DNA of 64,000 nt from Effrenium voratum (taxonomy: Eukaryota; Sar; Dinophyceae; Suessiales; Symbiodiniaceae). The position numbers were made by a program, and so were the translations under genes. Each line of letters starts with the position of its first letter. Positions within the stretch are counted from its first letter, which is position 1. Shown piece after piece: positions 14,704 to 29,018 of the stretch. Location: the NCBI GenBank assembly GCA_963377175.1, contig CAUJNA010003772.1:1053615-1117614 (forward strand), given 5' to 3'. The notes under the pieces were generated by a model that was not told the DNA's origin, made no database searches, and was given only the letters and a program-made list of their open reading frames with translations.

Positions 14704-14817
14704 CTCGGTGAAACACCGCCCGGAACCCCATAAGATTGGAAGGGGTTACAATTCAAGGAGGCGAGTTGACAAAACCACGGACCTGGTCTTTGTGGGGCTT
14801 CAAAACCACCCAGCTAC

Positions 14818-14900: not shown

Positions 14901-15134
14901 CTGGGAGGAGTGAAGGGCTTCTTTGAATGGTGTTGATCTTCCAACCAACGGTAAGAAACATGTCCGAGCATGAAGTCCCAAGTCTCCTGCGAGAAGCAAC
15001 CTCTTCAAGACTTGGTTGGTGGAGTCTTGAACTACACTTTTCCATGTTGAAGATGTTAAAGCTTGGTCCGGCTACTAGTGGGCCGGTGAAACCCAAGTGG
15101 ATTTTGCTCTGCAACCCCCATGGGCTCCCATCTC

Positions 15135-15244
15135 CTGATCTTCTTTTCCAGGGAAGACATCCTCCAAGACCAACTGCTTGCCGTTCAAACCCTCCGGACA
15201 CTTGCCCCTGAGGCCAGCTTCCTCCAGAACCTTGGGCACATCCT
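15135..15244 (-). CDS. internal exon, hypothetical protein
   Basis: A CCACAG acceptor (15250-15245) precedes EDVPKVLEEAGLRGKCPEGL, then NGKQLVLEDVFPGKEDQ. The pattern V..VLEEAGL...GLNGKQLVLEDV again looks SAM-like. It is in phase with the exon at 15739-15877 (1 nt left there, 2 nt here). The 3' boundary is uncertain: a GA donor after CAG (15135) or a site further on. Function unknown. Confidence 0.4.
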
Positions 15245-15738
15245 CTGTGGTCCAAGCAAGTGAAAGGTGCCCGTCGCATGTTGTCACCAGCTTCCTCGAT
15301 GGCCTGGAGGTGATTCCCAGGACCACGGCGATCGTCCCCAAGTTTCGCGTCTTTTCTTGGAAGCCAAACACCTATCAACAATCTGCGTAAAACCTAACGA
15401 AAGAAATGTCGCACACCCCTCTTTTTTTGGGACACGCTATCAGGGCGAGCTCAAGCCCTCTTGCTTTCAGGTGTGTGTTGCCAACAATACTTCATGAGAA
15501 AATTGAAATACTGGTTCAAAATATCATGTTGCCCAAGGTTTACAGGCAAAACCCGGCTTTGGGTTTTAGAACACCTTCGCCACCAAAATAAATGACTACT
15601 GGGCTGCCCTCAGATCCCCCGCTAAAAGTTCAACTGTTAGTGGGTTAAAATTTCAAACTACCACAAACACGAAAAGGCCAAGCAACCGGATGGCTCGGAA
15701 CCACCAAGAATGCATCGACACAGATTTTCCCCCCGCGC

Positions 15739-15877
15739 CTTCTGAATCGAGCTCCGGATCCGCGTCCCGCTTGGCCTTGGTGGCCGCTTGCTTCTCCGCC
15801 TCAGCGCCCGCGGAGACCTCCGTCACCACCTTGTGCAGCGCGGCCAAGGTCTTCTTGTCCAAGGCCTTGACGATCTC
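15739..15877 (-). CDS. internal exon, hypothetical protein
   Basis: Starts after a CGCGCAG acceptor and encodes EIVKALDKKTLAALHKVVTE followed by an Ala/Lys/Glu-rich stretch ending DADPELDSE. It has strong G/C third positions and a possible GC donor (GAAG|GCGCGG). Predicted helical and charged. It is the most 5' exon recognised of this gene; the retroelement complex begins 144 bp further upstream at 16021, so the element may sit in an intron or the 5' flank of this gene. No family recognised. Confidence 0.45.
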
Positions 15878-16020
15878 CTGCGCGCGCAACCGGACCGATT
15901 GCAAGAAATTTGTCGAAATCCTACAGAGACCGGGATATAGGGAGTTATGGAAGATTAGCAGGTATGGTGGTTGAAGACCTGGGTTGGTAAAGTGAACAGG
16001 ACATAGCAATGAATATCGGA

Positions 16021-16174
16021 CAGACTCTTCAAAGCACCACATTGGTGCTACTGGTACCTTAATCGCGAACGGTGCATCCTTTACGCCGCATAAGGATTAG
16101 TGCCAAAATGGGAGGATTGCCCAGCTCCACTGGGCAGCTCCCCTCAGCAGCTGATGGGAGTAGAATTGATGCCA
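16021..16174 (-). repeat. 3' terminal repeat of the downstream unit
   Basis: 154 bp identical to 21735-21888. On the plus strand it begins CAGACTCTTC and holds two hairpins: AGCACC(ACATT)GGTGCT at 16033-16049 and GCCCAG(CTCCA)CTGGGC at 16119-16135. Identity stops sharply at 16174/16175, 51 bp from the RT stop codon. It probably serves 3'-end recognition by the reverse transcriptase and/or the recombinase; that role is inference. Confidence 0.9.
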
Positions 16175-16225
16175 CTCCCACAGCGAGGGAGGAATCCTCC
16201 CACCTCACCGGATGCCCTCCCGGCA

Positions 16226-18694
16226 TCATGGGTGAGGAAGGAAAGTAGCGAAGATCAGCTTGATCAATTCGCTTTCGACTGAGGGGAAGACCCGGTTCTC
16301 AGTCGGAAATTGCGGGTCCGGATGAGTAAGTTCATCCGCCCATGTGTTAAAGTCGCGCTTCACATGCGACGGTCCTAACATGACCTGGTGGTCATGCAGT
16401 GTTAACACAATTTCCATGAGGATGGCCGCATTGGGCATCCTGCGAGTGGAATCGTTAAGCAGGGAGAAAACGTTTCCCTGGTTATCACTAGCAACCAGAA
16501 TCCTAGTGTGAGAAGCCGAGCCGGCTGCACAAAGCAGAACAGCCCTCACCAAAAGGAGGAGGCCGAAGAGCTCCAAGGCCGCTATCGCCCGCTGCGGGTC
16601 CCCAGTAGTGAAGGCCCACGGCTCGCCCTCCGGTGTGATTCTGTGTTGGAACCACTTCACTCGGGACTTGTCGGGGTTGGGCACGTCCGAGCACCAACCA
16701 CCAACCCATGCATGGTCCGCCTGTTTGCCAGCTCCCGCATCAGATGCCCCCGTCCATGGAAGTGTGGGAGCAAATGGAGATGCCAGTGGGAACCTCTGGT
16801 TGAAGAGCTTCCCCAGAAGGATGGCCAGAGCACGAACCAGCTTCGGTGGCCTGCCCGAAGTGGTGCAGGCCTTCTTCCAGCTCCAAAAGGGCTGGAGGAA
16901 AGGTTTCGTCAATGGACACGCCGAAGTAGCCCATTGAATCCGGCCCAGGGCTTGTTCCACCTCCTTGCTGGTAAAGATGTCCCCCTGGGCCAGCCGTTTG
17001 AGAGTGGCCAGGATTATGACGTGCTTGACTGGAGCCAGCAGCACACAGGGCGTGATTGGGTCCACCACGAATCCCAACCAGGTATTGACCGGGGAGAGCG
17101 CCGTCTTCTTCCAAGAAAGCGGGACTCCCAGCGCCAGAAGAGTGGCCAGGATGGCTGTGGCGTCCCAGTCCGCCCTGCTGCATCTGAGGACCCAGCAGTA
17201 GTCGTCCACAAAAACTAAGTGCCAGTCCACCTGAGGGAAGATGTAGTACAAGAGTCTGAGCACCAAGGATGCCTTTCTTCCCCAGTACAGTTGTGCCGAG
17301 GCCATGCCGTACGTGCCCACTCTATTGACCCACCACCGGTTCTGGATGCAGGCCACCTGGTATTTCCAGTCTTTCTGGAGCACTTTTATGCGCCTGTGGG
17401 CCTTGGTGACATCCGCCTTGAGGATGATGAAGGTTTCCCCCTGTGTCGGCGGCTGCCACGTCAGGGGTTCCCCCCTGCTCCCCCCCGGGCGTTCCGTGCC
17501 TGGGGGGGTTGGGGGGAATGGGGCCCTCCGATCAGGGCCCTCGGCACCTGGGAGTGGCCCCTTCCCTGAGGGTGTTGACCGCGGAGAGACGTCCAGGCCG
17601 CCTGAGGTCTCCATCATCCGCCTGCCCCTCTCAGGGCCCTCGGCACCTGGGGGCAGGCTGGTGCTGTGGGGGTCCCTCTCAGGGCCCTCGGCACCTGGGG
17701 ACTGCCCCTGCACCGGCTGGTGAACATCCCGAGGTTCCTCATCAGTGCCCGAGGATGGGGCTCGGAGTAGATGAGGATGGTCCGCCGCTGTCCTGAGCCA
17801 GTGGATGGCATGGAGGCAGTCTCCAACCATCGGTGCGGTGGTCTTCTCCTCCGTGTGAGCCTGGATGTGTGCGTTTGCTCCCCCTTTTGAGCCATCATAG
17901 ATCGTCCTGATCTTGTCCGACTCATCAATCCCTGCAAGGGGGCCCGGGCAAAGTTCCTCCGGTTTGCAGCGGCACCTCTCTGCCGCCTCGGAGCGAGTGA
18001 AGGGCCCGTCCACCATGTCCAAGGCTCGTTCCTCGTAAAAGGTTGATTCGATTTCCTTGGCAAAGAGTTCAGCCGTTGGGTAGTTATCATGAGCCACTGG
18101 CGGGGGGGGATCTTCCCCCAGCCAGGCTTCTCCCTTAAGCTCCTCCTTAGTGGGCCAAACTCCCGGGGAGGTCAAGGTAGGGTCCGAGACTCCCAAGGGG
18201 ACCCCCTCTTTCAGTGTTAGGGGGAACTCCCAATCAGGGTCACCTGAAAGGGATGCCAAGTGCGACACTAAGTCCAGGAGGAAGGGTTGTCCTGGGCATC
18301 GTTCATGGAGGTGCCTCGGTCCTAGGATAGCCCGCAGCTCCTCGAGGTCGGCTTCCTGGAAGGGGTGTGTGGTGGCACCTGATGCCAGGGACATTCGGAC
18401 CTTGTCAATCCAGGGCCGGGTAAGGGTCATGATCAGGGCGCCCAAAGTAGCCAATGGGGAAATTCTCCGAAAAGGGGGGTTGAGCCTCCCTGGGGAAGGT
18501 TTTCCCCCCCCATCCCTCAGGGGGCGTGAGCGGAAACCCAATTGGACAATCGCCACCCGGTCAGTGAGGTGTGGGACCCTGAAAGCGGGCAGGCATTCGG
18601 GGCGGTCCAGGACCTGGTCCCCCTGTCCCTCCTTCCCCAGTTGTTCCGCATCTCCGGCCATCGGGGGCATGGGAGATGGGAAGTCTGGGTTCAT
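16226..18694 (-). CDS. reverse transcriptase-RNase H (DIRS-like Pol)
   Basis: 822 residues from the first Met, but the frame is open back to 18961 and overlaps the methyltransferase ORF by 89 nt in +1, so the protein may start by frameshifting. RT motifs: finger segment KIRTIYDGSKGGANAHI (261-277), motif A ILKADVTKAHRR (D428), motif B YGMASAQLYW (462-471), catalytic FVDD (495-498), then LSWKK...WLGFVVD (526-545). The last resembles the LGF.(I/V)D motif of DIRS RTs. RNase H candidates are D652, E708, D737 and D781/D787. A proline-rich insertion (about 310-420) between finger and motif A carries three hairpin-derived GAEGP peptides. All catalytic acids are present, so it could be active. No protease or DDE integrase motif was seen. 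Confidence 0.85.
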   Translation of the reverse strand: MNPDFPSPMPPMAGDAEQLGKEGQGDQVLDRPECLPAFRVPHLTDRVAIVQLGFRSRPLRDGGGKPSPGRLNPPFRRISPLATLGALIMTLTRPWIDKVRMSLASGATTHPFQEADLEELRAILGPRHLHERCPGQPFLLDLVSHLASLSGDPDWEFPLTLKEGVPLGVSDPTLTSPGVWPTKEELKGEAWLGEDPPPPVAHDNYPTAELFAKEIESTFYEERALDMVDGPFTRSEAAERCRCKPEELCPGPLAGIDESDKIRTIYDGSKGGANAHIQAHTEEKTTAPMVGDCLHAIHWLRTAADHPHLLRAPSSGTDEEPRDVHQPVQGQSPGAEGPERDPHSTSLPPGAEGPERGRRMMETSGGLDVSPRSTPSGKGPLPGAEGPDRRAPFPPTPPGTERPGGSRGEPLTWQPPTQGETFIILKADVTKAHRRIKVLQKDWKYQVACIQNRWWVNRVGTYGMASAQLYWGRKASLVLRLLYYIFPQVDWHLVFVDDYCWVLRCSRADWDATAILATLLALGVPLSWKKTALSPVNTWLGFVVDPITPCVLLAPVKHVIILATLKRLAQGDIFTSKEVEQALGRIQWATSACPLTKPFLQPFWSWKKACTTSGRPPKLVRALAILLGKLFNQRFPLASPFAPTLPWTGASDAGAGKQADHAWVGGWCSDVPNPDKSRVKWFQHRITPEGEPWAFTTGDPQRAIAALELFGLLLLVRAVLLCAAGSASHTRILVASDNQGNVFSLLNDSTRRMPNAAILMEIVLTLHDHQVMLGPSHVKRDFNTWADELTHPDPQFPTENRVFPSVESELIKLIFATFLPHP
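17520..17703 (-). repeat. three hairpin repeats inside the RT ORF
   Basis: Cores at 17533-17550, 17632-17649 and 17680-17697 read CAGGGCCCTCGGCACCTG on the plus strand. Each folds as CAGG-GCC/GGC-A-CCTG with loop CTC. Arms pair uniquely: 17520-17529 with 17551-17561 (10 bp, one bulge), 17620-17628 with 17650-17658 (9 bp, perfect), 17672-17676 with 17699-17703. In frame they encode PGAEGP. Confidence 0.9.
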
Positions 18695-18872
18695 TGTTCC
18701 ACGAGGGCTTACGGTGTCTGCCTCAGGGTGGAACTGCCCGTGCAGGCGGGGCTTCGGGGCGTTCTTGCCTCCGGTCTTTGAGCCCTGGTGTGATGAGGAG
18801 GGACCGCCTCCTTGACTGGGCCCCCGTTTTTCCCGGGGGGAATGGCCTTCCGGGGGGTCCGACCCCCGCCCC

Positions 18873-18961
18873 TTAGGTGGTCCCTTGGGGAAATTGTGAG
18901 GGGATCCGGATGTGCCCCGGCGCTGCGAGTGACACAGCGATGGCTTTGGCCAGGCCTGCCA
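18873..18961 (-). other. overlap of methyltransferase and RT frames (+1)
   Basis: The RT frame opens right after a TGA at 18964-18962 and runs without stops through the methyltransferase end (TAA at 18875-18873) to the RT Met. It lies one nucleotide downstream of the methyltransferase frame, so a +1 shift within 89 nt would fuse them. The sequence here is a low-complexity Gly/Pro/Arg linker in the RT frame. No classical -1 slippery heptamer applies. Confidence 0.6.
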
Positions 18962-20033
18962 TCATATCCCAAGGGTATCTGCTAAGAGTCGAGGACTCGT
19001 TGGTGCCCACATGTGACTGATGCGTGCACCGCATTTGATCCCAGTCCTGGATCGGGAGATCCGTGGCCAGCGTAGTGGCCTTCTTGACCAGCTGGCCCAG
19101 GCGGCACTGGTCGAAGGAGATTGCTGTCAAGGAGTTCTCCTCCATCCAAAGCTGCCCCTCCTCTGTGATCCAGAAGGATGAGCATTCCTTGGCTTTGGGC
19201 AGCGAGCTGCTCACCACTGGGTCCTCCGGGTGTTCCAGGAAGGACCTGGGCCCTGGCAGAGAAACCGCCGCTCGTGAGGCCCTTGCCAGGCTGGTGATGT
19301 ACATCTGTCTCAGAATGAGGATGCTGTCATCATCAAGTTGAGTCTGGGCGGCCTGGTCCAGGTGTGGAAGGCCCCAAAGTGTCTCTGGAGTGCGCCCTCG
19401 CACCGGGGTGGGAGCCCCCGGTTTTGGTATGTGGCGCAGGATGGACCATGTCCTGCAGTTGGGTCCTCCTCCAATGAAGACCACTCGGCCCTGCTTTGCT
19501 GCCGTGCAAAGAGCTCCATACAGCTCGGGTTGGAGCATATCGTGGTCCCCCTTGGGTCCAGACCGTAGGATGTCTACCGCCACCACCATGCTGGAAAGGT
19601 GTGGGTAGTTGGCATGAAGACAGCTGTCCAAGGAAGTAGGGTCCTCCTTGCCTGCATAGAGCAGGACAATGATGGGCCCACTGGATGGAACTTTGGGCGA
19701 TGTGCCCTGTGTCCATCTCAACCGCTGTACCAGACGCTCAGGGATGTTCTCCATCCACGGGAAGATGTCCAATCCCGGTGACGGCTCCGTTGGACTTGTC
19801 AGGGGGGTAGCTGAAAGGCGTTGGCCCCCTTCATTCAGCCCCACCGAGCTCTTGTGGAAAACCACCGGGTCCTGCTTGATGATGTTGGGCGCCGGAAGTG
19901 GGATCGGCTGCTTCCTGGGAGTGTCCCTTGGCGTTGCGGTGTGCTGCCAGTCATCCGGCACTCGGGCCTTCTGGGTGCGGCCCCCCGTGTCAGGGCCCTC
20001 GGCACCTGCGGGGAACCGTCCCGTCCCCGCCAT
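18873..20033 (-). CDS. cytosine-C5-methyltransferase-like domain protein
   Basis: 386 residues from the first Met. The same frame is open upstream to the Gag stop at 20330-20328, so translation by readthrough would add a 98-residue Pro/Arg/Gly-rich linker. Class I methyltransferase features: IIVLLYAGKED (121-131, motif I), VVAVDIL (150-156, acidic end of strand 2), VVFIGGGPNCRTWS (184-197, cf. the PC loop of C5 enzymes, C193 as candidate nucleophile, Asn for Pro), FLEHPEDP (265-272, cf. motif VI ENV/ENP) and FDQCRLGQLVKKAT (307-320, cf. motif VIII). The Pro-to-Asn change and the weak Glu context leave activity open. Some DIRS elements and some dinoflagellate retroelements are known to carry methyltransferases. 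Confidence 0.7.
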   Translation of the reverse strand: MAGTGRFPAGAEGPDTGGRTQKARVPDDWQHTATPRDTPRKQPIPLPAPNIIKQDPVVFHKSSVGLNEGGQRLSATPLTSPTEPSPGLDIFPWMENIPERLVQRLRWTQGTSPKVPSSGPIIVLLYAGKEDPTSLDSCLHANYPHLSSMVVAVDILRSGPKGDHDMLQPELYGALCTAAKQGRVVFIGGGPNCRTWSILRHIPKPGAPTPVRGRTPETLWGLPHLDQAAQTQLDDDSILILRQMYITSLARASRAAVSLPGPRSFLEHPEDPVVSSSLPKAKECSSFWITEEGQLWMEENSLTAISFDQCRLGQLVKKATTLATDLPIQDWDQMRCTHQSHVGTNESSTLSRYPWDMMAGLAKAIAVSLAAPGHIRIPSQFPQGTT

Positions 20034-20308
20034 ATCAGGGCCCTCGGCACCTGTGGCTCGGGACTGAGGCGCCGCCGTTGTGCCGGTTGTGTGGCTGTTC
20101 TGATCACGGCGAGGGCGTTGTGCACGCTGGTTCTGCCGTCCCCATCCTTGTTCCGCCGAGGATGGCCGCCACCTGGCCTGTCCCCCCCCTGTGTCAGGGC
20201 CCTCGGCACCTGCAGGAGGGGGCTTCTGTGCCTGCTTGGGGCGTTTGCGCCCCTTCTCGCCCCCCCGGGCCTTATCAGGGCCCTCGGCACCTGAGGCCTC
20301 CCGGGGGG
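19981..20308 (-). repeat. four hairpin repeats between Gag and methyltransferase
   Basis: Cores at 19991-20008, 20036-20053, 20195-20212 and 20276-20293, all with loop CTC and the same orientation. Arms: CCCCG/CGGGG (19983-19987 with 20009-20013), GCCA/TGGC (20029-20032 with 20054-20057), CCCCCCCTG/CAGG(A)GGGGG (20183-20191 with 20213-20222), and CCCCCCGGG-CCT/AGG-cct-CCCGGGGGG (20261-20272 with 20294-20308). All are in frame as GAEGPD in the open frame joining Gag to the methyltransferase. Confidence 0.9.
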
Positions 20309-20323
20309 TAGGGGTCAGCGCCC

Positions 20324-20330
20324 CTAGTCA
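20324..20330 (-). promoter_or_regulatory. candidate stop-codon readthrough site UGA-CUA-G
   Basis: The Gag frame ends with TGA (20330-20328) followed by CTAG. The same frame is then open for 98 codons into the methyltransferase ORF (20330 minus 20033 is 297, divisible by 3). UGA CUA is the best-documented leaky stop context in animal and fungal genes. A Gag-readthrough-enzyme layout also exists in gammaretroviruses and some other elements. That it acts here is inference. Confidence 0.6.
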
Positions 20331-21606
20331 ACCCGGGCAGTCCTGCGGGAGGTGGTCCCCCAGGCAGATGCGGCCCATTGCCAGGATGAGGTTGCACTTG
20401 TGGGTGCGGCCGCAGTTGCCCGGGCAGCGCCCGCGCATCCAGTTGTTACAGAACTGGTTCCCTTTCGGGTCGGTGGCTGCCTGCTTGCTACCGCCCCGGG
20501 ACGCCTGATTGTTCAGGTGGGGGGGCTTACCCTTCCCTTTGTTCCCAGGCTTGCCCTTGGGCTTCCCCTTGCCCTTGGACTTGTTCTTGCCCTTCTGAGG
20601 TGGTGCGTAGTCCATGGATGTCCTGGTTGATGGGCGGCCCCTGGAAAAGGTCTTGATCTTCTCATAGACCTCACGTGTCCAGAACAATGTGTCCTGCCTG
20701 ACCGACAGCATGGCCGCCTTGAGGGTGTTGCCCTCATGCATCTTCTCGTGAATCTTTCGCCATGCGTTGCGTTCGGCAATTGCCAGGACGTGGTCCTCTG
20801 GCGGGGGAAAACGGCCCCCGATGTCCTCACCATAGAACCACTCGTACCAGCTCTCCAAGTCCTCCCGGGTGATGTCGAACTGGCCGAACTGCGGGAACGA
20901 GAGGACGCACATGAGGAGGGTGTTGCGGAACACCGCGTGCATCCTCTCGAGCTGGTGGCGAGTTTTGGGCTCGCCCCGCTCTTCCACCTCATCCTCCCGG
21001 TCCCAGCCATCAACCGTGCTCTTCTTAGTGGTCTTCCATGGCCGTTCTCCTGGCTCCGGGAGTGCGCTTACCAGGTATTTCATGGGGATGAAACCGATCT
21101 CGCCTCCTGCGCAGAGCTTGAACTGGCGCTTCACCAGCTGGTCGCTTCCTTGAAGGGCCAGCTTGGGTTTGGTGAGCTTGGTCTTCTCCTCCCAAACCCT
21201 CTCCAGCTGTCCCCGTTCGCACGAGACCGTGAGATTCGGGGCGGTGTCCCCGGGCGTGTGTGGCCCGGGTCCCGCTGTTGCATGCGCCCCAACTCCCATG
21301 GATCGTTGAGCCGCGTGAACCACCTGGAACATGCGGGCCGCGATCAGCCGGGAGGTCACATCCGTGTAGTGGTGGTTGTTGGGGGCGAAGCCCAACTCCC
21401 CCGGCGCCGTCTCCCTTGCACGGTCGGGCGAGTCCCACCGGGTCGCGAGGTCCTCCATCCGATCACAGTGTCGCTTGGATGAACCACGGGATGCCCTTGA
21501 GGACCATGAGGTTCCTGGCGGTCTTGTGGAGCTTAGCCACTGCGTCCGTGTACACTCCAGGAACTTCCTGTGGTGGTGCCACCAACTCATCTGGTGTCGC
21601 CGCCAT
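20328..21606 (-). CDS. Gag-like nucleic-acid-binding protein, N-terminus frameshifted
   Basis: The main frame (residues after about 21475) ends in a Lys/Gly-rich stretch (KGKNKSKGKGKPKGK) and a zinc-finger-like cluster C-x7-C-x3-C-x3-H (FCNNWMRGRCPGNCGRTH), then further Cys/His before TGA. This is a typical nucleocapsid-like end. The best start is ATG at 21606-21604, 15 nt below the shared leader, giving MAATPDELVAPPQEVPGVYT and about 27 more residues. That frame hits TGA at 21465-21463, while the main frame lies in +1 and is open there. A one-base insertion near 21465-21480, or a +1 shift, is needed to join them. The main frame can also be read from an ATG at 21641 inside the leader, but those ~60 residues look like out-of-frame sequence. 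Confidence 0.65.
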
Positions 21607-21621
21607 GGTGTGGGTGGGCGG

Positions 21622-21736
21622 GATTTCAAATCACAAGACAAAGATCAAAAGGTCCACTTGAGCCAAAATGGTGGCCCAAGTGGATACTTATTAAGAGTCA
21701 AGACAAGCGACCACCTACGGTTAACGCTTTAGCCCA
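21622..21736 (-). repeat. 5' leader repeat of the downstream unit
   Basis: 115 bp matching 28446-28561 with one missing C. It ends 15 nt before the Gag ATG at 21606. It contains the 15-nt spliced-leader match (21657-21671) inside an inverted repeat TCCACTTG...CAAGTGGA. It directly abuts the 3' repeat of the upstream unit, sharing CA at 21735-21736. Confidence 0.9.
21657..21671 (-). promoter_or_regulatory. dinoflagellate spliced-leader-like sequence
   Basis: The minus strand reads CCATTTTGGCTCAAG, identical to the last 15 nt of the 22-nt dinoflagellate spliced leader, in the sense of the element's genes and 50 nt before the Gag ATG. It lies in a stem CCACTTGGGCC/GGCTCAAGTGG (one G-T pair). 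It may be a relic of trans-splicing followed by reverse transcription, or a mimic. Confidence 0.75.
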
Positions 21737-21888
21737 GACTCTTCAAAGCACCACATTGGTGCTACTGGTACCTTAATCGCGAACGGTGCATCCTTTACGC
21801 CGCATAAGGATTAGTGCCAAAATGGGAGGATTGCCCAGCTCCACTGGGCAGCTCCCCTCAGCAGCTGATGGGAGTAGAATTGATGCCA
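21735..21888 (-). repeat. 3' terminal repeat of the upstream unit
   Basis: 154 bp identical to 16021-16174, including both small hairpins. It forms the head-to-tail joint with the downstream leader. Such a joint is what a circular element, or insertion of one copy at the end of another by a tyrosine recombinase, would produce. Confidence 0.9.
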
Positions 21889-21983
21889 TCCCCAACGGAC
21901 GGATCGCATCAGCTGCCAATACCAACGGACGAGCTGGTCGTTGGGGAGGTCCTCCCTCCACGTATGCCGTGTGGTCCCGTTGT

Positions 21984-22370
21984 CGCATTCCAGGGCCCTC
22001 GGCACCTGTGCGTCCAGCGGTCCGGCTGCGGTCCACCCGGTGCGGACCCCGTCAATCCGCCGCCTGGGATGCCCGGGGACATCTCAGGGCCCTCGGCACC
22101 TGTGTCCCCTGGTTCCCCGGGGCACTGGCCCCCTGGGATAGGGGCGAGAACATCTCAGGGCCCTCGGCACCTGTGTCTCCCCCCTCCAGGCCCCTTCGGG
22201 GTTGCGTGTCAGGGCCTTCGGCACCTGCGCTCCCCGCTGGCCGCGGGGCTGGGCCCCTGGGGGGGTGCCGGGGAGGGCGTATCAGGGCCCTCGGCACCTG
22301 CGCCCTCTCCCCCTGCCTCCTTGCCTTGAGGCATGGGGGGAAGCGTGTCAGGGCCCTCGGCACCTGCGCT
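21984..22370 (-). repeat. array of six hairpin repeats in the 3' untranslated part
   Basis: Cores at 21991, 22085, 22156, 22210 (loop TTC), 22283 and 22349, each 18 nt, spaced 54-94 bp, downstream of the recombinase stop. Arms are unique per copy: CGCA/TGCG, GGGGACA/TGTCCCC (22075-22081 with 22103-22109), ACA/TGT plus GAG/CTC plus GGGG/CCCC, GCG/CGC plus GGGG/CCCC, GGGGAGGGCG/CGCCCTCtCCCC (22270-22279 with 22301-22312), AGCG/CGCT. Being outside any ORF, these pairings are not forced by a peptide. Confidence 0.9.
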
Positions 22371-22379
22371 ATCCACCCC

Positions 22380-24560
22380 TCACTCAATTTCCGGGAGGAC
22401 GACCGCCTCCTTGTCCGACTGAGTGTCCACGCTCTCGTCGGTGTCCGAGGAGAGGGAGATGGAGGCCTCGGAGTCCTGTGCTGCGTAGGGCTCCACGGCC
22501 ATCCACGTGTTCGGGAAGGTGAAATGCCGGAAACATCTGGTGCATCCCAGGTACACCTCCGGCTCAGCATGGAAGTCCTGCTCCGCCAGCTCCGAAATCT
22601 TGAGCGGTCCCGGCCTCCAGCCGCACCCCACTGTGACTCCATCTGTGTCCAGTAGGTGCATGCTGTAAGCTTTGGTGGGACCCTTTCGGGCCGTGGTGGC
22701 TACCACCGTCAGTGGACCCCGAGGCGGGGGCACCTCATCCGCCGCCGTCTTGGTGATGGCCGGCTTGTTGGCGGGGATCACATCCCAGCTGGCATTCGAG
22801 GGCGGTGTGTCCGGGACTTCCTTGAACAAGGCCTTCGGTGAGGCCGGGCACTCCACCTTGTCCTCCCAGTCCTCATGTCCGAGGTCGACTCGGACCGCCC
22901 TTCCTGCCTCGAGTTGCATGGACGGGAGCTTCTGGAGGACCTGGTCCCAGATGGAGCACACCACGTGTCGCTTCTCCCGGGTGTAGACATCCGCCGTGGA
23001 CTCCTTGAACCAGTTTCCCAGGTACTGGCGCTGGTCCCTCGGTATGTGCGCCTGGAATGCCAAATCCGGCATGAAGACCCGGAAGGAGTACCATGAGAGT
23101 TCAGCCACGTCCTTGGCTGGCGCGCCCTGCTTCCCCAAGGCGTCTTTAAGCCACCTCAGGGACCTGTCTGGGGTTCCTGGGCGGGGGATGAAGCCCGTCC
23201 TGTCCTTGTTGATCGTGGGGATCAGGTAGTCCATCTCGCGGAACTCCTCCGAGGCCCTGAATCTCTTCCACCACCGCTCCAAGGGGATCCACCATCTGGC
23301 CCCCGAGAAGGAGAACAATGGGGCGATGAGCGGGACCGGGTTCCGTTTGATGGCCACTGCCGACGTGGTCTTCGTTTGCCAGGCCAGCAGCTCCAGGGTG
23401 TTGCTCGTGGACTTGACCGTCTGCGGCGAGGTGTGCTGCACGTCGTTGAAGCGCGCACTGCAGGCCAGGTTGAACCTGGCCATCGCCATGATGTACCTGT
23501 CCACTGCTTTGGTCAGCTCCGGGACCCGGTTCTCCGGCGGGGCCCCTTCTGCCCCTTGTTCCAGGGCCCAAACAATTGCCCGGGTCGGAACCACCGCCTT
23601 GCGCTGTGGCTTGACCTGGGTGTCCACCAGCGTCTCCTGGATGGCTTTCCGCTTCTCCAGGAGTTGTTTGTGTTCGTCAACGTTGAGCATGCCGAGTTTA
23701 ATGGAGAGCCACTTTAAAGTGCCCCACCACTTCTGGAGCTTCGCCGGGGTGACCTCCAACGTGACCGCCTGGTTCATGAGGTGCCGGACGTCGCCAGCCG
23801 TCCAGGGGAGGTTCTGGAAGCCGATCTTGCGCATGCCCTCATAGGCCAAGCAGTGTGCCCGGATGGTACGGAACCGGGCATCACCAAAGAGGTGGCCAAA
23901 CTCCTCCAGCTCCCTGGCCCCCATCACCTGGTGCATGTAGGGGATCTGGTGCCGGAAGGGGATGAAGTATCCCAGGAGGCGTTCCAACCACCTGGCCCTC
24001 AAGTGTTGTTCCAACGCTCTCTGAGATGTCGGCAATTGGGTTTTGATCTTCCCTGGTTTCCAATGCCGCCACTTGTTGGCCACTGCCAGGACATCCGGGG
24101 CCTCAATCGATCCGGAAAGGATCCACTCTTCGCGGTCCCGGATGGCCTGTTCCATTTCCAGTGGAGAATAGGTGTGCGATTGCCTGGCGCCTGCCGCACG
24201 AAACAGAAGTTGTTGCAGGGTCTTAGTAGCGAGCTCCAAATCCGCCTCCTCCAGCGGTTGTGGTTGGGAGCCGAGTATCCTCGCGAGGATCAAGTTGTAG
24301 GTGTCCGAGGCCACCAGGACGTGGTTGCCGTCAGGTGCCAGCCCCACGATCCGTGTCCACGGCCGCGGGTCAAAGACCACCGCATCCGGGTTGGCGACCT
24401 TGTCCTTTTTGACCCATTCCAGGCAGCACGCCACGAGGATTTCCCCGTCCGACTGCACTGGTGCAAATCCAAGGTCATGCAAAATCAACTGGAGCGCGGT
24501 TGGCGCCCCTAGGAAGGTCGTCCCAAACGGGGAAGGGAGGCGGGGCCTCCACATCATCAT
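22380..24560 (-). CDS. tyrosine recombinase (DIRS-like integrase)
   Basis: 726 residues starting MMMWRPR; a TAG in the same frame at about 24590 rules out an upstream fusion. The catalytic domain spans roughly residues 345-545. Box I arginine R370 (CSARFNDVQHTSP), candidate lysine K397 (WQTKTTS), box II SWYSFR with R494 and Tyr491 in place of the usual His, then W517 (LGNWF) and the nucleophile Y526 (TADVYTREK). The N-terminal ~340 residues would be arm- and core-binding regions. The C-terminal tail has a CxxC (GCTRC, 672-676) and an acidic Ser/Asp end. Tyrosine recombinases insert circular DNA without target duplication, fitting the CA-only joints here. It is the only integrase candidate for both units. 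Confidence 0.8.
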   Translation of the reverse strand: MMMWRPRLPSPFGTTFLGAPTALQLILHDLGFAPVQSDGEILVACCLEWVKKDKVANPDAVVFDPRPWTRIVGLAPDGNHVLVASDTYNLILARILGSQPQPLEEADLELATKTLQQLLFRAAGARQSHTYSPLEMEQAIRDREEWILSGSIEAPDVLAVANKWRHWKPGKIKTQLPTSQRALEQHLRARWLERLLGYFIPFRHQIPYMHQVMGARELEEFGHLFGDARFRTIRAHCLAYEGMRKIGFQNLPWTAGDVRHLMNQAVTLEVTPAKLQKWWGTLKWLSIKLGMLNVDEHKQLLEKRKAIQETLVDTQVKPQRKAVVPTRAIVWALEQGAEGAPPENRVPELTKAVDRYIMAMARFNLACSARFNDVQHTSPQTVKSTSNTLELLAWQTKTTSAVAIKRNPVPLIAPLFSFSGARWWIPLERWWKRFRASEEFREMDYLIPTINKDRTGFIPRPGTPDRSLRWLKDALGKQGAPAKDVAELSWYSFRVFMPDLAFQAHIPRDQRQYLGNWFKESTADVYTREKRHVVCSIWDQVLQKLPSMQLEAGRAVRVDLGHEDWEDKVECPASPKALFKEVPDTPPSNASWDVIPANKPAITKTAADEVPPPRGPLTVVATTARKGPTKAYSMHLLDTDGVTVGCGWRPGPLKISELAEQDFHAEPEVYLGCTRCFRHFTFPNTWMAVEPYAAQDSEASISLSSDTDESVDTQSDKEAVVLPEIE

Positions 24561-24915
24561 GATCCACTCGAGCCGGGGGCTTAGTCCCTAGGTGCAAACC
24601 CCAACCAAACAACAGGGGGCCCCCCAAAACCCCGGAAAGTCAACCCCGAAACGGAGGAAACGGGGGAAAAAGGGGGACCCAGGGAGCCGCCCCGAAAAGG
24701 GAAAACCAAACAAGAGAGGGGAACCAAGGCGCACCCCGGATCAGCCCAAGCCGCGCCAATTTTCCTCGCCTGGTGCAAGTCTGGGCCTGCGCTGTTCCCT
24801 GGGGGGGGATATCAGCGCCTTCGGCAGCTGTCCCCCCCCCGGGGTGCGCTGCGCATCCGTTCCGGATGGCCGCGGTCCTGGATGGTGTGCCGGAAGATGG
24901 CGTTGTCCCGCATCA
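24561..24915 (-). other. intergenic gap between recombinase and 1168-aa ORF
   Basis: 355 nt of purine/pyrimidine-skewed sequence (plus strand rich in CCCC, GGGG and AAAC runs). It contains one hairpin repeat at 24801-24839 and no ORF in phase with either neighbour. It may hold a second promoter or an intron; neither can be shown. Confidence 0.5.
24801..24839 (-). repeat. variant hairpin repeat with compensatory pair
   Basis: Core CAGCGCCTTCGGCAGCTG (24813-24830). Against the family consensus the fourth base G is C and its partner C is G, so the pair is kept while both bases changed. The loop is TTC. Arms GGGGGGGGA (24801-24809) and TCCCCCCCC (24831-24839) pair perfectly over 9 bp. Confidence 0.9.
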
Positions 24916-27900
24916 TCACGCGGCCCCCTTCGCGATGTCATCGATGCGCTTGAGCGCAGCAGCCTCCGGATTCCGCAGAATCAGCTCCCAGATGGCATTG
25001 GAGACGTGGCCTGTCTGGGTGGTCTGGCTGAATCTGAACCTGGGCACCTTCTGGTCCACGATGGAGACGTCCCGCAACGGGGCCGAGGGCTCCACCCGGC
25101 GGTAGTACTCCAGCCGCTCCTTCACCCAGCGGTTGTAGAGGCCCTCCGGCGGCTCGTCCAACACCAGCTGCAAGATGGCCTTGCCGGCCCGGATCTGGAG
25201 GAGGCGGGTGCCCCCTCCCCCGGCACGCCAGTACCCCTTACAATACTTGCACATGTAGCCCCCCCGGGTCTCCCCTTTTGTCTTCGGGATGAGTTCCCAC
25301 GGGGTGACGGAGCTCAGGACCAGGCCACACTCCATGTGCGCCCAGAAGACATGCTTCATCTCCACCGGATAGTTCTTCTTCCGGTAGTCCTTACCCACCA
25401 CGCCGTGGACGTTGTCCGCCGTGATGGGGGGGTAAACGATCCCCTCATCGCCCTCGCCTCCCCTGGGGCGGATGTCAGGGCCATCGGCACCTGTCCGGCA
25501 CCCAGGGGCGGAGGGGTCCAGGCCCATCAGCTTGATCATGTCGTTGGTGTAGCCGAGCTTGCGGTAGATGGAGGGGGCCACTGAGTCGGGGACTGCGCCG
25601 ACCCACCACTGCTTCGTGTTGCAGCGCCAGTTGACCTTCACCTCCGCCAGGGCCCCCGGGCCTCCAATGCGGTCCATGAGGGCCTTGTACACCTCTGGGA
25701 ACTGCTGGAGGCTCTCCACCGGGACCGAGATGCGCTCGTCGCATACCGCCCGCAGGATCATCTGCTCCTTGGAGTCCGCCACGTCCTGGACCGGGAGCTG
25801 CATCACCTCCGCCGGGGTGTCCGTGAGGAAGGCCCGGGCCGCGAGGACCTTGCCCATGGCCCGGTAGACCAATCGCCACTCCGGTCCTGTCTGCGGAAAC
25901 GGAAGGCCCTCCTCCTTCAGGAAGCACCGCGCGTCCTCCTTCAGGGTCTCCCAGCCCTCCAGGCGGGTCTGATTCTGGGCCTTGTTTTTCGGGCCCCGCT
26001 GCCTAGGGCCCTGCAGCAGTGGCAGAGACTCCCAGACTCCCCAGAGCTGGCGCAGGGTGTAGCTGTGCCCGAACATCCCCAGTAGGCCTGGGAGTGTCCA
26101 GGACGAGATCTGGCGAATCCAGTGGAAGTCCTCATCCGGATCGTGGGGGGCAGCCCAAAAGATGGATCGCAGGTCCCCAGGGTAGGGTCGGGCAACGGAG
26201 TACCTGGCCCAGGGGAGTCCACCCACCTGGTGGTTCCTGGGATGCGTACCCTTCTCCAACGCCTCCGGATTCACCTTGGTGAGGTTTTCCGCCCAATCCG
26301 GGACGTGTACCGGGCCCGGTCGTCGGACCCAGCGGCCCGCAAAGATACGGACCTCTCCGACCCGTTTGCTCATCATCCAGCGCAGGACCGCGAGCTGCAC
26401 CTCCGGGTCCTTGGTGTCCAGGCCCACCGGGGTGGCGGACGGCTTGTCAGGGCCCTCGGCACCTGAGCTCGTCACGCCAGAGCCCGAGGCTGGGGGGATG
26501 GTGGGCGGCCTGTCAGGGCCCTCGGCACCTGGGCGCGCCGCACCAGAGCCCCCCGCCTTTGGCATGGGGATCCCTGCCAGGTCCGGCAGATCTGACAGGA
26601 GGGCCGCCGGGAAGGGATTCCTACCCAGCGAGATGACCGCCTTGGCCTCAAGGTAGGAGTCCGTGAGGGATGTGAGGTCGTCCATACTGAAGTCCCTCCA
26701 TGCCGTTGTCGGCTCGAAGACCCCAGTCTCAATGGCGACCCGGACCTCACTAGGCCACGCACTGAAGGGAGGCGCGATGGGCTCGAGCATTCTGGTTTCG
26801 AGGGAGCCCTTCGCCTGTCTGGCTTGGTGTTTCGCTTTCGCCTCCTCCGCAGTGGTCTGGGCCTGGAGGAGCTCCGGTGTGGGTCTCCCCCAGTCCGCAC
26901 CCAGCTTGTCCAGCAGCTTCTCACGGAAGAGGTCCAAGTCCAGGTTCTTCAGGAGCAGGCCTCCATCACCTCCTCCGTCAATGGCCCCCCCTTGAAGTTC
27001 GTGGAGGACCGCCGCGGAGCGCTCCACCGCTTCCACCTGGTCCGCCTTCTTGGCCTCCTCCTGGGCGATGGTGGTGGCGTTGAGCCGGGTCTGAATCTTG
27101 AAGGCCTTCACCGCAGACGGGTGGAAGGCTCTGCATTCCTGGCCCTCTTCCTTGTCGCCTGGCAATGGGGGCCTCTCCCCCGGTGGGGCCGTCAGAAACT
27201 CCTCGTCCAGCTCCATGGGGCAGTTCCTGATCACCGCCCGGACCGAGGAGGGGACGAAGTCCGAGAAGCTGGCCTGGTCCGGGTTCTCGCAGGCCATCGG
27301 GTCGGTGGCCAGCTCGCTGACGTCCACCGAGGCACTGAGCTTGAGGTCGCGGGCCCGGTCCGTGTCAGGGCCTTCGGCACCTGCGGACCGGGCCGCCGTC
27401 CAGACCGCATTGCCCTGGTCATCCACCGTCAACTGCCAATGCGTGCCCGCCATCTCCAGGGTGGCCGAGTTGGTCGCCATGTCAATGGGCTCCGTCTTCT
27501 TGCCGCACCCCATGCACTTCGTGGCGCCCTTCTTCACCCAGGGCATGGTGCAGCAGGGGCAGATCCAGGATGTGGGCACCTTGCCCAGGGGGCGGTTCTC
27601 CAGGCCCCCGTACCCCAAGCCAGCGCGCTTGCCAACCTGCTGTCCCGGGGTGCTGAGCCGGGCCTCATGCTCGTACTTCATCTTGGCGATGTAGAAGGCC
27701 TCCACAACGCGCTCCAGGCCCCCCTGCTTGAGTTGGGGGCCCTCAAAGCCTCGCAGGAGCCGCTGGACGTCCTTGGCCTGCAGTCGGCGGAGCCTAGTGG
27801 CCGTGGTCGCATCGAAGCAAGGGAAGTCGCCCGCCATCTGGTCGTCGCTGAACTGGTAGAGGCCCTCCGAGACCTTGAGGGCCTTGGTGAACACGCTCCC

Positions 27901-28422
27901 CCCCGGCGGGGGGGCTGCGGGGTTCTCATCCTCCTCCGAGGACGCCTGCTCCTTGACCTTCGCCATCAGCTCCCGGCGCCTCTGCCACTTGGCGTCTGCC
28001 CGGGCATCCAGGCGGGTCTCCTCCAATCGGGCTGCAGCCGAGGGGGACCGGGGCATCGGCAGCTCCTTCTCGTCCTGCGCCCGGAGCTCCTCCATGGGCA
28101 CGTCCTCCTCCGGCGGGTTCAGGAGCTCCAGGAACGCCCCTGGGGGGCGTGTCAGGGCCTTCGGCACCTGCGCCACCCCAGGGGCTGCATCTTCCATCGG
28201 CTCATCCTCTGCCTTGCGCTTGGCCGGGATAAGGGGGGTCTGCTCCAGCTCATCTGCGCTTGAGAAGAAACGCTCGTCAGGTGCCTGAGGGACCTCGGCA
28301 GCCAAAACGGTCCATCCTTCTTCCTCCCTCTTCACGAGGCTCGCCAGGTACTTTGCCATGGAGGCCTTTGCCTTAGCCTTAGCCTCTGCTACCGCGGCAC
28401 CGGCGTAGGCGGGGGCGTACAT
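24916..28422 (-). CDS. 1168-aa element protein of unknown function
   Basis: Starts MYAPAYAGAAVAEAKAKAKA 24 nt after the shared leader ends (28446), which supports this Met. An N-terminal Ala/Lys/Glu helix and acidic-basic low-complexity region precede a zinc ribbon CPCC-x11-CMGC (288-306, CxxC...CxxC). There follow a helical Glu/Lys-rich middle, proline-rich spacers with hairpin-derived GAEGPD peptides, and a globular-looking C-terminal third with a second CxxC (CKYC, about 1058-1061, preceded by HMEC). I recognise no enzyme motif. By position (first ORF after the leader) it could be a second structural or Gag-like protein, or a replication or DNA-binding factor partnering the recombinase. 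Confidence 0.75.
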   Translation of the reverse strand: MYAPAYAGAAVAEAKAKAKASMAKYLASLVKREEEGWTVLAAEVPQAPDERFFSSADELEQTPLIPAKRKAEDEPMEDAAPGVAQVPKALTRPPGAFLELLNPPEEDVPMEELRAQDEKELPMPRSPSAAARLEETRLDARADAKWQRRRELMAKVKEQASSEEDENPAAPPPGGSVFTKALKVSEGLYQFSDDQMAGDFPCFDATTATRLRRLQAKDVQRLLRGFEGPQLKQGGLERVVEAFYIAKMKYEHEARLSTPGQQVGKRAGLGYGGLENRPLGKVPTSWICPCCTMPWVKKGATKCMGCGKKTEPIDMATNSATLEMAGTHWQLTVDDQGNAVWTAARSAGAEGPDTDRARDLKLSASVDVSELATDPMACENPDQASFSDFVPSSVRAVIRNCPMELDEEFLTAPPGERPPLPGDKEEGQECRAFHPSAVKAFKIQTRLNATTIAQEEAKKADQVEAVERSAAVLHELQGGAIDGGGDGGLLLKNLDLDLFREKLLDKLGADWGRPTPELLQAQTTAEEAKAKHQARQAKGSLETRMLEPIAPPFSAWPSEVRVAIETGVFEPTTAWRDFSMDDLTSLTDSYLEAKAVISLGRNPFPAALLSDLPDLAGIPMPKAGGSGAARPGAEGPDRPPTIPPASGSGVTSSGAEGPDKPSATPVGLDTKDPEVQLAVLRWMMSKRVGEVRIFAGRWVRRPGPVHVPDWAENLTKVNPEALEKGTHPRNHQVGGLPWARYSVARPYPGDLRSIFWAAPHDPDEDFHWIRQISSWTLPGLLGMFGHSYTLRQLWGVWESLPLLQGPRQRGPKNKAQNQTRLEGWETLKEDARCFLKEEGLPFPQTGPEWRLVYRAMGKVLAARAFLTDTPAEVMQLPVQDVADSKEQMILRAVCDERISVPVESLQQFPEVYKALMDRIGGPGALAEVKVNWRCNTKQWWVGAVPDSVAPSIYRKLGYTNDMIKLMGLDPSAPGCRTGADGPDIRPRGGEGDEGIVYPPITADNVHGVVGKDYRKKNYPVEMKHVFWAHMECGLVLSSVTPWELIPKTKGETRGGYMCKYCKGYWRAGGGGTRLLQIRAGKAILQLVLDEPPEGLYNRWVKERLEYYRRVEPSAPLRDVSIVDQKVPRFRFSQTTQTGHVSNAIWELILRNPEAAALKRIDDIAKGAA
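25460..25508 (-). repeat. hairpin repeat in the 1168-aa ORF, loop ATC
   Basis: Core 25476-25493 with loop ATC, the only such variant. Arms CCCCTGGG-g-CGGA (25460-25472) and TCCG-gca-CCCAGGGG (25494-25508) give 12 bp with two small bulges. Encodes GADGPD in frame. Confidence 0.9.
26434..26544 (-). repeat. two hairpin repeats in the 1168-aa ORF
   Basis: Cores at 26448-26465 and 26514-26531, loop CTC. Arms are less regular: GGCG/CGCC, GAC/GTC and GCT/AGC around the first; GGTG/CACC (26500-26503 with 26541-26544) and GG/CC next to the core around the second. Both encode GAEGPD. Confidence 0.8.
27352..27394 (-). repeat. hairpin repeat with perfect 11-bp arms
   Basis: Core 27366-27383, loop TTC. 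Arms GGCCCGGTCCG (27352-27362) and CGGACCGGGCC (27384-27394) are perfect complements. Encodes AGAEGPD in the 1168-aa ORF. Confidence 0.92.
28136..28185 (-). repeat. hairpin repeat with 14-bp arms
   Basis: Core 28153-28170, loop TTC. Left arm 28136-28149 (GCCCCTGGGGGGCG) pairs with 28171-28185 over 14 bp with one bulged A. In this copy the ORF reads the core in another frame (AQVPKALT), so the GAEGPD peptide itself is not what is conserved. Confidence 0.92.
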
Positions 28423-28445
28423 GGCTTTGAGAGAGGGGAAAGAAA

Positions 28446-28561
28446 GATTTCAAATCACAAGACCAAAGATCAAAAGGTCCACTTGAGCCAAAATGGTGGC
28501 CCAAGTGGATACTTATTAAGAGTCAAGACAAGCGACCACCTACGGTTAACGCTTTAGCCCA
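28446..28561 (-). repeat. 5' leader repeat of the upstream unit
   Basis: 116 bp matching 21622-21736. It is the outer right edge of the complex; identity with the inner copy ends at A28561, beyond which flanking DNA begins (ACAATCGC). The 1168-aa ORF starts 24 nt inside. It contains the spliced-leader match at 28482-28496. Confidence 0.9.
28482..28496 (-). promoter_or_regulatory. dinoflagellate spliced-leader-like sequence
   Basis: Second copy of the minus-strand CCATTTTGGCTCAAG match, 60 nt before the ATG of the 1168-aa ORF and within the same 11-bp stem. A CCGTAG, equal to the 5' part of the leader, lies 43 nt upstream at 28545-28540; six bases can match by chance. Confidence 0.75.
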
Positions 28562-28595
28562 ACAATCGCTTAGTAGCCCTTGAAACTGAAAAACG

Positions 28596-29018
28596 GTGTC
28601 TGAAAACGACACCCAGTCCTTCAAGTCCCCTTCATTCATTTTGCCAACTCCCGCGGCCACTGCGCTGGCGGTGGATCCAGCTCCTCCCATTTTCTCAGAT
28701 CTTTGGGGTGGGAAGCGGCTTGAGATCAGGGGATATCACTTGATCCAATGGCTGCGGAGCACTGGGAGCCGCCATCCAAATGCTTCAAGCAGAGGCAGGA
28801 AAGCAAGAAGAGCTGAATACTTTTACCAGAGTCTGAGAGACGATTTGTTTATGTTTGGATCAGAACGAGTCACCCAGCAGTTCAGAGTGTCATTCGATCG
28901 CCACTTGAGAGATCTTTCCAAACTAAGTCGAACTCGTCTCAAGCGACTTGAAGCCCCTCTAAACTTCCAAACCATCACCAACATGGTGTGCCCTAAACTT
29001 ATCGCTCCTCCAATTTGA
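28596..29018 (+). CDS. possible 140-aa hypothetical ORF
   Basis: An ATG-started frame 35 bp outside the element's right edge, with a Pro/Ala-rich start and a basic helical-looking end (RTRLKRLEAPL). Codon bias is weak. It is on the strand opposite to every other credible exon, so it may be fortuitous. Its beginning overlaps a small inverted repeat GGTGTC-TGAAAAC-GACACC (28595-28613), whose right half matches the end of the MITE at 3432-3554. Confidence 0.2.
   Translation: MSENDTQSFKSPSFILPTPAATALAVDPAPPIFSDLWGGKRLEIRGYHLIQWLRSTGSRHPNASSRGRKARRAEYFYQSLRDDLFMFGSERVTQQFRVSFDRHLRDLSKLSRTRLKRLEAPLNFQTITNMVCPKLIAPPI

What the first reader, a model, noticed from the sequence alone, without database searches (positions are those of the whole stretch)
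17520..28185. Nineteen hairpins with a fixed core and copy-specific, self-complementary arms
The 18-nt core CAGGGCC-(C/T/A)TC-GGCACCTG occurs 19 times, all in the 12.5-kb complex and none elsewhere in the window. Plus-strand starts are 17533, 17632, 17680, 19991, 20036, 20195, 20276, 21991, 22085, 22156, 22210, 22283, 22349, 24813, 25476, 26448, 26514, 27366 and 28153. The core folds on itself (7 bp, 3-nt loop, one bulged A). The bases on either side differ between copies but pair with each other, for example GGCCCGGTCCG/CGGACCGGGCC and GGGGACA/TGTCCCC. A constant core with private complementary arms is not explained by simple duplication. It suggests either an insertion mechanism that copies flanking DNA in inverted form, or strong selection on hairpin structure. 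Palindromic elements inserted into ORFs in Rickettsia are a loose analogue.
Basis: seen in the sequence. Interest (0 to 1): 0.92.

Follow-up and report, generated by a model that had tools for sequence, protein, structure and literature searches.

The report
Nineteen matched hairpins in a retrotransposon
A jumping element in what looks like a dinoflagellate genome carries up to nineteen copies of one nearly fixed hairpin tip, each on its own differently spelled but matching stem, which suggests that evolution preserves a repeated nucleic-acid docking structure spread through the element and its genes.

Summary
Eighteen exact cores plus one (24813) with a pair-preserving double change lie in one ~12.5-kb minus-strand element and nowhere else in the window. 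On the sense strand each reads: private 5' arm, CAGG-U-GCC-GAD-GGC-CCUG, a 3-nt linker (mostly ANA), private 3' arm. The three arm pairs next to the core can pair in 19 of 19 sites with 3-4 pair types each.

The host is a retrotransposon of ~270 copies with split direct repeats (A1..B1A2..B2), RT-like, Gag-like and recombinase-like ORFs (motif readings only) and spliced-leader relicts: a DIRS/SymbioDIRS-type layout. The genome has 3,859 exact cores. Hairpins sit in two coding frames and in noncoding DNA, so the constraint is on nucleic acid rather than on the peptide GAEGPD.

No precise empty site was found: 47 of 47 listed family copies of one site hold a 21-nt insert. I therefore prefer selection on a repeated recognition hairpin (packaging/RNP-type signal) over a mobile module. 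Which strand, and RNA or DNA, is unresolved; one strand test points away from sense RNA.

The parts
16021..28561 (-). host element, a retrotransposon with split direct repeats (sense = minus strand)
   Evidence: repeats; about 270 copies (268 by RT motif; 269 by compensated core)
28464..28561 (-). repeat A1, holds spliced-leader-like CCATTTTGGCTCAAG (28482-28496) inside a predicted stem-loop
   Evidence: (identical to 21639-21736)
24916..28449 (-). ORF 1177 aa, unknown, holds 5 hairpins
22380..24587 (-). ORF 735 aa, tyrosine-recombinase-like by motif reading only
   Evidence: no convincing family match, hhalign no match
21735..21894 (-). repeat B1
   Evidence: 99% to 16021-16180
21639..21736 (-). 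repeat A2, with a second spliced-leader-like stretch (21657-21671)
20328..21644 (-). ORF 438 aa, Gag-like with a C-terminal CCCH-type cysteine/histidine cluster (read by eye)
18873..20327 (-). ORF 484 aa, N-terminal part of Pol in this copy, holds 4 hairpins
   Evidence: 26 of 52 matches of the next ORF lie in open frames of over 1300 aa
16226..18961 (-). ORF 911 aa, reverse-transcriptase-like (FVDDYCW) and RNase-H-like, holds 3 hairpins
   Evidence: identity by motif only
16021..16180 (-). repeat B2
17520..17560 (-). hairpin 17533 (core 17533-17550), linker ATC here, ATA in 11 of the 14 instances
17619..17659 (-). hairpin 17632; altered core in 11 of 34 rows
17667..17707 (-). hairpin 17680
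19978..20018 (-). hairpin 19991; first loop base A instead of G in 21 of 31 rows
20023..20063 (-). hairpin 20036; both-sides arm change T:A to C:G between subfamilies
20182..20222 (-). hairpin 20195
20263..20303 (-). hairpin 20276; inner arm pairs possible but left open in the RNAfold minimum
21978..22018 (-). hairpin 21991, noncoding
22072..22112 (-). hairpin 22085, noncoding, absent from the subfamily B stretches read
22143..22183 (-). hairpin 22156, noncoding, absent from the subfamily B stretches read
22197..22237 (-). hairpin 22210, noncoding, absent from the subfamily B stretches read
22270..22310 (-). hairpin 22283, noncoding
22336..22376 (-). hairpin 22349, noncoding; both-sides arm change C:G to A:T between subfamilies
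24800..24840 (-). hairpin 24813, noncoding, core with compensatory G-C to C-G
25463..25503 (-). hairpin 25476
26435..26475 (-). hairpin 26448
26501..26541 (-). hairpin 26514
27353..27393 (-). hairpin 27366; filled in 47 of 47 listed family copies
28140..28180 (-). hairpin 28153, the one coding hairpin in the QVPKALT frame

Best explanation
The 19 hairpins are copies of one structure-dependent recognition site of a split-direct-repeat retrotransposon. Shown: the tip (CAGG, one bulged base, GCC, loop GAD, GGC, CCUG, plus a 3-nt linker that is mostly ANA) is nearly fixed; the stems below it differ freely in sequence but pair. Inferred: one factor, most likely the element's own Gag-like RNA-binding protein, reads the tip, the stem holds it up, and many dispersed sites give multivalent binding, i.e. 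packaging or RNP assembly of the element's RNA. Sites accumulate in linkers and UTRs because only there can both the fixed tip and the paired arms be afforded.
For: Tip invariance: 6 of 7 core pairs never vary over the 19 sites and the seventh varies by one compensatory change; A-to-B mismatch 3.1% in the core against 8.5-12.5% in arms and near flanks and 7.1% in the rest of the element. Fixed linker length and inner arm pairs that can pair in 19 of 19 sites with several pair types. Constraint at nucleic-acid level: 7 of 19 lie between ORFs, and of 12 coding ones 11 are in one frame and 1 in another. The best 55-nt window per hairpin folds at mean -31.8 kcal/mol against mean -16.3 for 2142 sliding windows away from them, though some of those reach -32.9. 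Recurrent 5'-arm bulge 3-5 pairs below the core in 9 of 19. Dispersed stem-loops with a shared recognition motif are a proposed packaging mechanism in several RNA viruses (PMC6281560, passages read).
Against: No sense-strand G.U signature: G.U 7 and A.C 9 cells in the arms; MFE asymmetry not significant at flanks 14, 18, 24 (p 0.038 for sense at flank 12). Genome-wide, core variants of the class that keeps G.U on the sense strand are fewer (3874-3859=15) than the A.C class (3896-3859=37), p 0.003 if independent (the reversed patterns give 4 and 3 chance hits), although C>T equals G>A (58 and 58) outside the hairpins; this speaks against sense RNA as the selected strand. 23% of outer-helix cells are unpaired, and some arm variants shared by several copies break pairs. 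RNAfold leaves the inner arm pairs of 20276 open. No binding partner, transcript or particle was tested. Most sites are shared by all copies read, so independent events are few.
Confidence: 0.42

Rival explanations
1. The hairpin works as single-stranded DNA (first-strand cDNA, circle or cruciform) and is read by the element's recombinase or reverse transcriptase, loosely as integron attC hairpins are read by a tyrosine recombinase.
For: Genome-wide core variants favour the class that keeps wobble on the antisense (cDNA) strand, 37 to 15, with no such bias outside hairpins. The element has a recombinase-like ORF by motif.
Against: The counts may share descent; singletons within hairpins run the other way (C>T 8, G>A 4). 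No recombination product was seen; recombinase identity is unproven.
Confidence: 0.2
2. A mobile 21-nt hairpin module (core + linker) inserts into the centre of palindromes, or its insertion creates inverted flanks; the 19 copies are transposition products.
For: At several sites (27366, 17632, 22085) the innermost arms on either side of the 21 nt would abut as a palindrome without spacer. Near-identical cores with unrelated arms look like insertions. Three hairpins are present in the window and other A copies and absent from the B stretches read.
Against: No empty site in 47 of 47 listed family copies of 27366; at 7 sites 218 of 226 intervals hold 21 bases and the other 8 are partial deletions or a loss together with the arms. 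The A/B difference is one stretch of roughly 220 nt with three hairpins, not a 21-nt insertion. All 111 exact cores in L009-L026 lie in stretches that align to the element.
Confidence: 0.15
3. The hairpins bind a host factor (nuclear export, translation, silencing escape) rather than an element protein.
For: Same structural evidence; the element carries spliced-leader relicts, so its RNA probably uses host mRNA processing.
Against: In the part of the genome-wide listing that could be read the core was seen only in this family; nothing points to a host partner.
Confidence: 0.15
4. A protein repeat: GAEGPD is the selected unit (linker or protease site), and the DNA repeat is a by-product.
For: 11 of 12 coding copies read GAEGP(D/E) or its loop variant GADGPD in the same frame, p 0.006 against equal use of the two stop-free frames.
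Against: 7 of 19 are noncoding and 1 codes QVPKALT; almost no synonymous drift in the core of the 19 sites apart from the loop; arms pair, which a peptide does not need.
Confidence: 0.05

Closest known systems
Dispersed packaging signals of ssRNA viruses (MS2 and others, hepatitis B pregenome)
   Same: Many stem-loops spread over one genome, shared recognition motif with loop and bulge, sequence around it varies (PMC6281560, passages)
   Different: Here the tip is almost perfectly fixed (18 of 19 identical outside the last loop base), with a fixed 3-nt linker, in a retrotransposon; binding untested
SymbioDIRS / DIRS-order retrotransposons
   Same: Split A/B direct repeats, separate Pol and recombinase ORFs, RT too divergent for Pfam (PMC5890265, passages)
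   Different: No methyltransferase match here; the held main text of that paper has no occurrence of hairpin, palindrom-, inverted repeat, stem-loop or secondary structure
Double-hairpin and repetitive hairpin elements of organelle genomes
   Same: Short repeated hairpins spread in a genome (search listing only; GC-richness recalled)
   Different: Those are organellar and thought mobile (recalled); here apparently nuclear, seen only in one element family, with private arms and no empty sites found
Rickettsia palindromic elements
   Same: Palindromic units in frame within ORFs (recalled; search listing only)
   Different: RPEs are repeats of whole units of about 100 nt or more (recalled); here only 18-21 nt are common and the arms are private
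Integron attC sites
   Same: Imperfect hairpins with extrahelical bases, read by structure (recalled, no call)
   Different: attC has conserved boxes in the stem and variable tips (recalled), the reverse of this; no recombination seen

Membership tests
DIRS-order (YR) retrotransposon | split direct repeats or inverted repeats (A1..B1A2..B2) | tested here: met
   28464-28561 = 21639-21736; 16021-16180 = 21735-21894 (99%)
DIRS-order (YR) retrotransposon | reverse transcriptase with RNase H | tested here: inconclusive
   FVDDYCW and RT-like motifs by eye; no Pfam match; model pLDDT 40.5 unusable
DIRS-order (YR) retrotransposon | tyrosine recombinase | tested here: inconclusive
   R..YSFR..LGNW..Y-like reading; no recombinase match in Pfam or PHROGs, no hhalign match to 3 Pfam-recognised YRs of the same genome; model pLDDT 37.1 unusable
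Dispersed packaging signal array | many stem-loops in one genome with a shared recognition motif | tested here: met
Dispersed packaging signal array | specific binding by the coat/Gag protein and effect on assembly | not testable with these tools
   needs binding and packaging assays
Mobile hairpin element (DHE/RHE/RPE type) | filled and empty orthologous sites | tested here: not met
   0 empty of 47 listed family copies at 27366 (250 places in all, 50 listed); 7 sites: 218 of 226 intervals of 21 nt, the rest deletions. Limited to this family's age
Mobile hairpin element (DHE/RHE/RPE type) | occurrence in unrelated sequence contexts of the genome | tested here: inconclusive
   111 of 111 exact cores in L009-L026 lie in alignments to the element, but only about 100 of 3859 places were listed
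Known RNA family (Rfam 15) | covariance-model match | tested here: not met
   0 at gathering score in the window; two sub-threshold matches, E 0.59 and 0.68, in 14000-32000

The most novel reading that the evidence does not exclude
The hairpins are a cDNA- or DNA-level hairpin system: structure-read sites, spread through a retrotransposon's own genes, that its recombinase uses during circularisation or integration, or that propagate as an extremely small self-inserting, palindrome-targeting module. The excess of antisense-wobble core variants (37 to 15) and the spacer-less palindromes flanking the 21 nt at several sites do not exclude this.
Probability: 0.15. Interest if true: 0.93.

Novelty: new variant of a known kind. 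Interest (0 to 1): 0.74.

Why it matters
A repeated, nearly invariant tip on private, pairing stems is an unusually clean natural covariation experiment inside one element: it names a recognition motif almost to the base and predicts a binding partner. If it is a packaging array, it would extend dispersed packaging signals from RNA viruses to a recombinase-type retrotransposon, where how the RNA is selected is, as far as I know, little studied. If it acts on cDNA, it would bear on how these elements integrate.

Tried and rejected
Protein-repeat reading: rejected because 7 of 19 hairpins are noncoding and arms pair. Known RNA family: none. Viral or phage relatives: the core has 3 exact hits in viral contigs, which looks like chance for that collection size (my estimate); no stretch of viral contigs matches the RT part's peptide patterns; no match of window 20330-22400 DNA or of ORF735 in phages; no PDB sequence match for the RT-like ORF and only E 0.65 or worse for ORF735. 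Structure prediction of the RT-like and recombinase-like parts: pLDDT 40.5 and 37.1, not used. Other YR genes of the genome were read at 3 places (L045-L047): tblastn with the element's proteins gave nothing below E 0.27, hhalign no match. Strand test by G.U and A.C: arms undecided; core counts point to antisense, within-hairpin singletons the other way. One of the three 'both sides changed' pairs (site 27366) comes from a misaligned or rearranged copy (L015) and was dropped.

A genome-wide test for loop base C was asked but did not complete; in the fetched loci there is none. Two other pattern requests did not complete and were given up (2-mismatch core; first-loop-base pattern). More distant families of the element were not found: the protein search scored only 50 of 3517 candidates, 93-100% identical.
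Full report
WHAT IS THERE. The core CAGGGCC(H)TCGGCACCTG is present at 18 of the 19 stated starts exactly and at 24813 with two changes that exchange a G-C for a C-G pair (0.27 matches expected at up to 3 mismatches). On the minus strand, which is the sense strand of the host element's ORFs, every copy reads: private 5' arm, CAGG, bulged T, GCC, loop GA(G/A/T), GGC, CCTG (24813: CAGC..GCTG), three-base linker (mostly ANA), private 3' arm. RNAfold forms the tip in all 19. It also pairs the inner arms, except at 20276, where the minimum leaves them open and pairs the outer arms, and at 26448, where one arm base pairs with the linker.

IS IT MORE THAN CHANCE. Arms pair at a 3-nt linker and at no other linker length from 0 to 7 (mean contiguous stem 5.16 against 0.58 or less), and permuted arms never reach the observed mean (0 of 5000). 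Allowing bulges, all 19 sites score 5 or more while 1.8% of 1500 GC-rich control positions do. Counted as an alignment of 19 paralogous sites, the three pairs just below the core are standard pairs in 19 of 19 sites with 4, 3 and 4 pair types; 86.4% of all cells are paired against 68.2% in shuffles, covariation 0.428 against 0.117 (0 of 500 for both), at most 0.218 when slid. In the outer helix 23.2% of cells are not paired, so arms are imperfect. Nine of 19 have a one-base bulge on the 5' arm 3-5 pairs below the core; gaps fall on the 5' arm 12 times and on the 3' arm 3 times (p 0.035). Other stretches of the element also fold well: 3.7% of 2142 windows away from the hairpins reach -25 kcal/mol.

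THE HOST ELEMENT. The genome held (1.156 Gb, 3699 contigs, and later genome searches) is unnamed; the size and a 15-base match (CCATTTTGGCTCAAG, twice) to the dinoflagellate spliced leader quoted in PMC6616646 (passages; match) make a dinoflagellate likely. The element runs from 28561 to 16021 on the minus strand: A1, ORF 1177 aa, ORF 735 aa, B1A2, ORF 438 aa, ORF 484 aa, ORF 911 aa, B2. The split repeats and separate Pol and recombinase ORFs resemble the DIRS-type elements described for Symbiodinium in PMC5890265 (passages), whose authors also found the RT too divergent for Pfam. Here no ORF of the element passes a Pfam cut-off, so RT, Gag-like and recombinase-like are motif readings. There are about 270 copies: 268 exact RT motifs and 269 copies of the compensated core, the 100 listed ones all C..G out of the nine combinations that the pattern allowed. 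The exact core occurs 3859 times in the genome and its reversal 0 times, about 14 per copy. About 100 of those places are listed; the 111 exact cores in the stretches fetched around listed places (L009-L026) all lie in alignments to the element.

HOW IT VARIES. The eight further copies read over most of their length fall into subfamily A (pieces mostly 97-100% to the window) and B (pieces mostly 88-95%). Mismatch to the window in B is 3.1% in the core, 16.7% in the linker, 8.5% in inner arms, 12.0% in outer arms, 10.6-12.5% in near flanks and 7.1% in the rest of the element. So the tip is conserved and the arms drift almost like the linkers in which they lie. Two arm pairs changed on both sides (22349 C:G to A:T; 20036 T:A to C:G; the third reported there comes from a rearranged copy); at 20036 an A.C intermediate is also present in 6 rows. 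In 201 hairpin instances the third loop base is G, A or T, never C; the first loop base changed at 19991; single-base changes at paired positions were A2>G (5 instances at two sites) and C1>T (one), which leave G.U on the sense strand; multi-base changes that break pairs come from site 17632 in B and from rearranged or deleted copies. Larger sets also show breaking changes: A2>T in one listed copy, and single rows with two-base changes (L073, L085). Site 17632 has an altered core in 11 of 34 rows: the arms stay but the bulged base and part of the upper stem differ; one further row has a deletion there. Hairpins 22085, 22156 and 22210 are missing from the B-type stretches read: 4 of 4 and 5 of 5 have three hairpins where the window has six.

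MOBILE OR SELECTED. A mobile module should leave empty sites. For 27366, of 50 places listed (250 genome-wide; reversed-pattern control 128) with the two 8-base arms 0 to 30 bases apart, 47 are family copies, all with 21 bases between; 3 are unrelated palindromes. At three RT sites (34 rows with the window, none dropped) and four Pol N-terminal sites (31 rows; L015, L016, L067 and L079 dropped for low coverage) 218 of 226 intervals hold 21 bases. Seven of the others are partial; one, L012 at 20036, is zero, but there the arms are gone too, a deletion of about 44 bases by my reading of the L012 row. All sites shared by A and B predate their split, so older relatives are needed to exclude ancient mobility.

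PEPTIDE OR NUCLEIC ACID. Eleven of 12 coding hairpins read GAEGP(D/E), or GADGPD at 25476, in one frame; one reads QVPKALT; seven are outside ORFs. The third frame would put a TGA stop across core and linker, so two frames are usable; 11 of 12 in one is p 0.006, perhaps because that linker peptide is better tolerated. The fixed DNA in noncoding and differently framed copies puts the constraint on nucleic acid.

WHICH STRAND. Undecided. Arms show G.U 7 and A.C 9 cells. Genome-wide, five core positions whose C>T keeps a sense G.U give 3874-3859=15 variants and the five partner G>A give 3896-3859=37 (reversed controls 4 and 3; p 0.003 if independent), while outside the hairpins singletons are equal, 58 and 58. 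At that outside rate about 37 of each would be expected, so it is the sense-wobble class that is short. That leans away from sense RNA and towards the antisense strand or cDNA, but shared descent is not removed and singletons inside the hairpins lean the other way (C>T 8, G>A 4).

CONCLUSION. A real, strongly covarying array of recognition hairpins in a DIRS-type retrotransposon. I prefer a packaging/RNP-assembly signal read by the element's own protein (0.42), with a cDNA-level recombinase site (0.2), host-factor binding (0.15), a mobile module (0.15) and a peptide repeat (0.05) as rivals. In searches of the held library for hairpins, dinoflagellates, DIRS and dispersed stem-loops none of the titles and abstract openings listed (capped lists) describes such an array; that library lacks most subscription journals.

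Noticed in passing
window 28482-28496 and 21657-21671: Spliced-leader relicts lie inside both A repeats; at the first the fold predicts a 13-bp stem-loop around it, so each of the two ORF blocks starts after one.
   Followed up: partly
window 18873-18961: The window copy splits Pol into ORFs of 484 and 911 aa; 26 of 52 protein matches elsewhere lie in open frames of over 1300 aa. Described only.
   Followed up: no
window 657-1672: 67 tandem copies of a 15-bp unit; a minus-strand ORF in it (664-1437) matches pentapeptide repeats.
   Followed up: no
L045, L047: Other recombinase genes of this genome lie near DNA-methyltransferase-like ORFs (by reading), as PMC5890265 describes for Symbiodinium elements.
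   Followed up: partly
G000 contigs C1 and C2223: Contigs with several strong phage-integrase matches; these may be bacterial companions in the assembly (inference).
   Followed up: no
window 26192: Several compared copies have about 32 extra bases here that the window copy lacks, one has 17; not a hairpin site.
   Followed up: partly
G000:C43, about 254900-276800: One element copy appears to be interrupted by about 22 kb within its Pol region.
   Followed up: no
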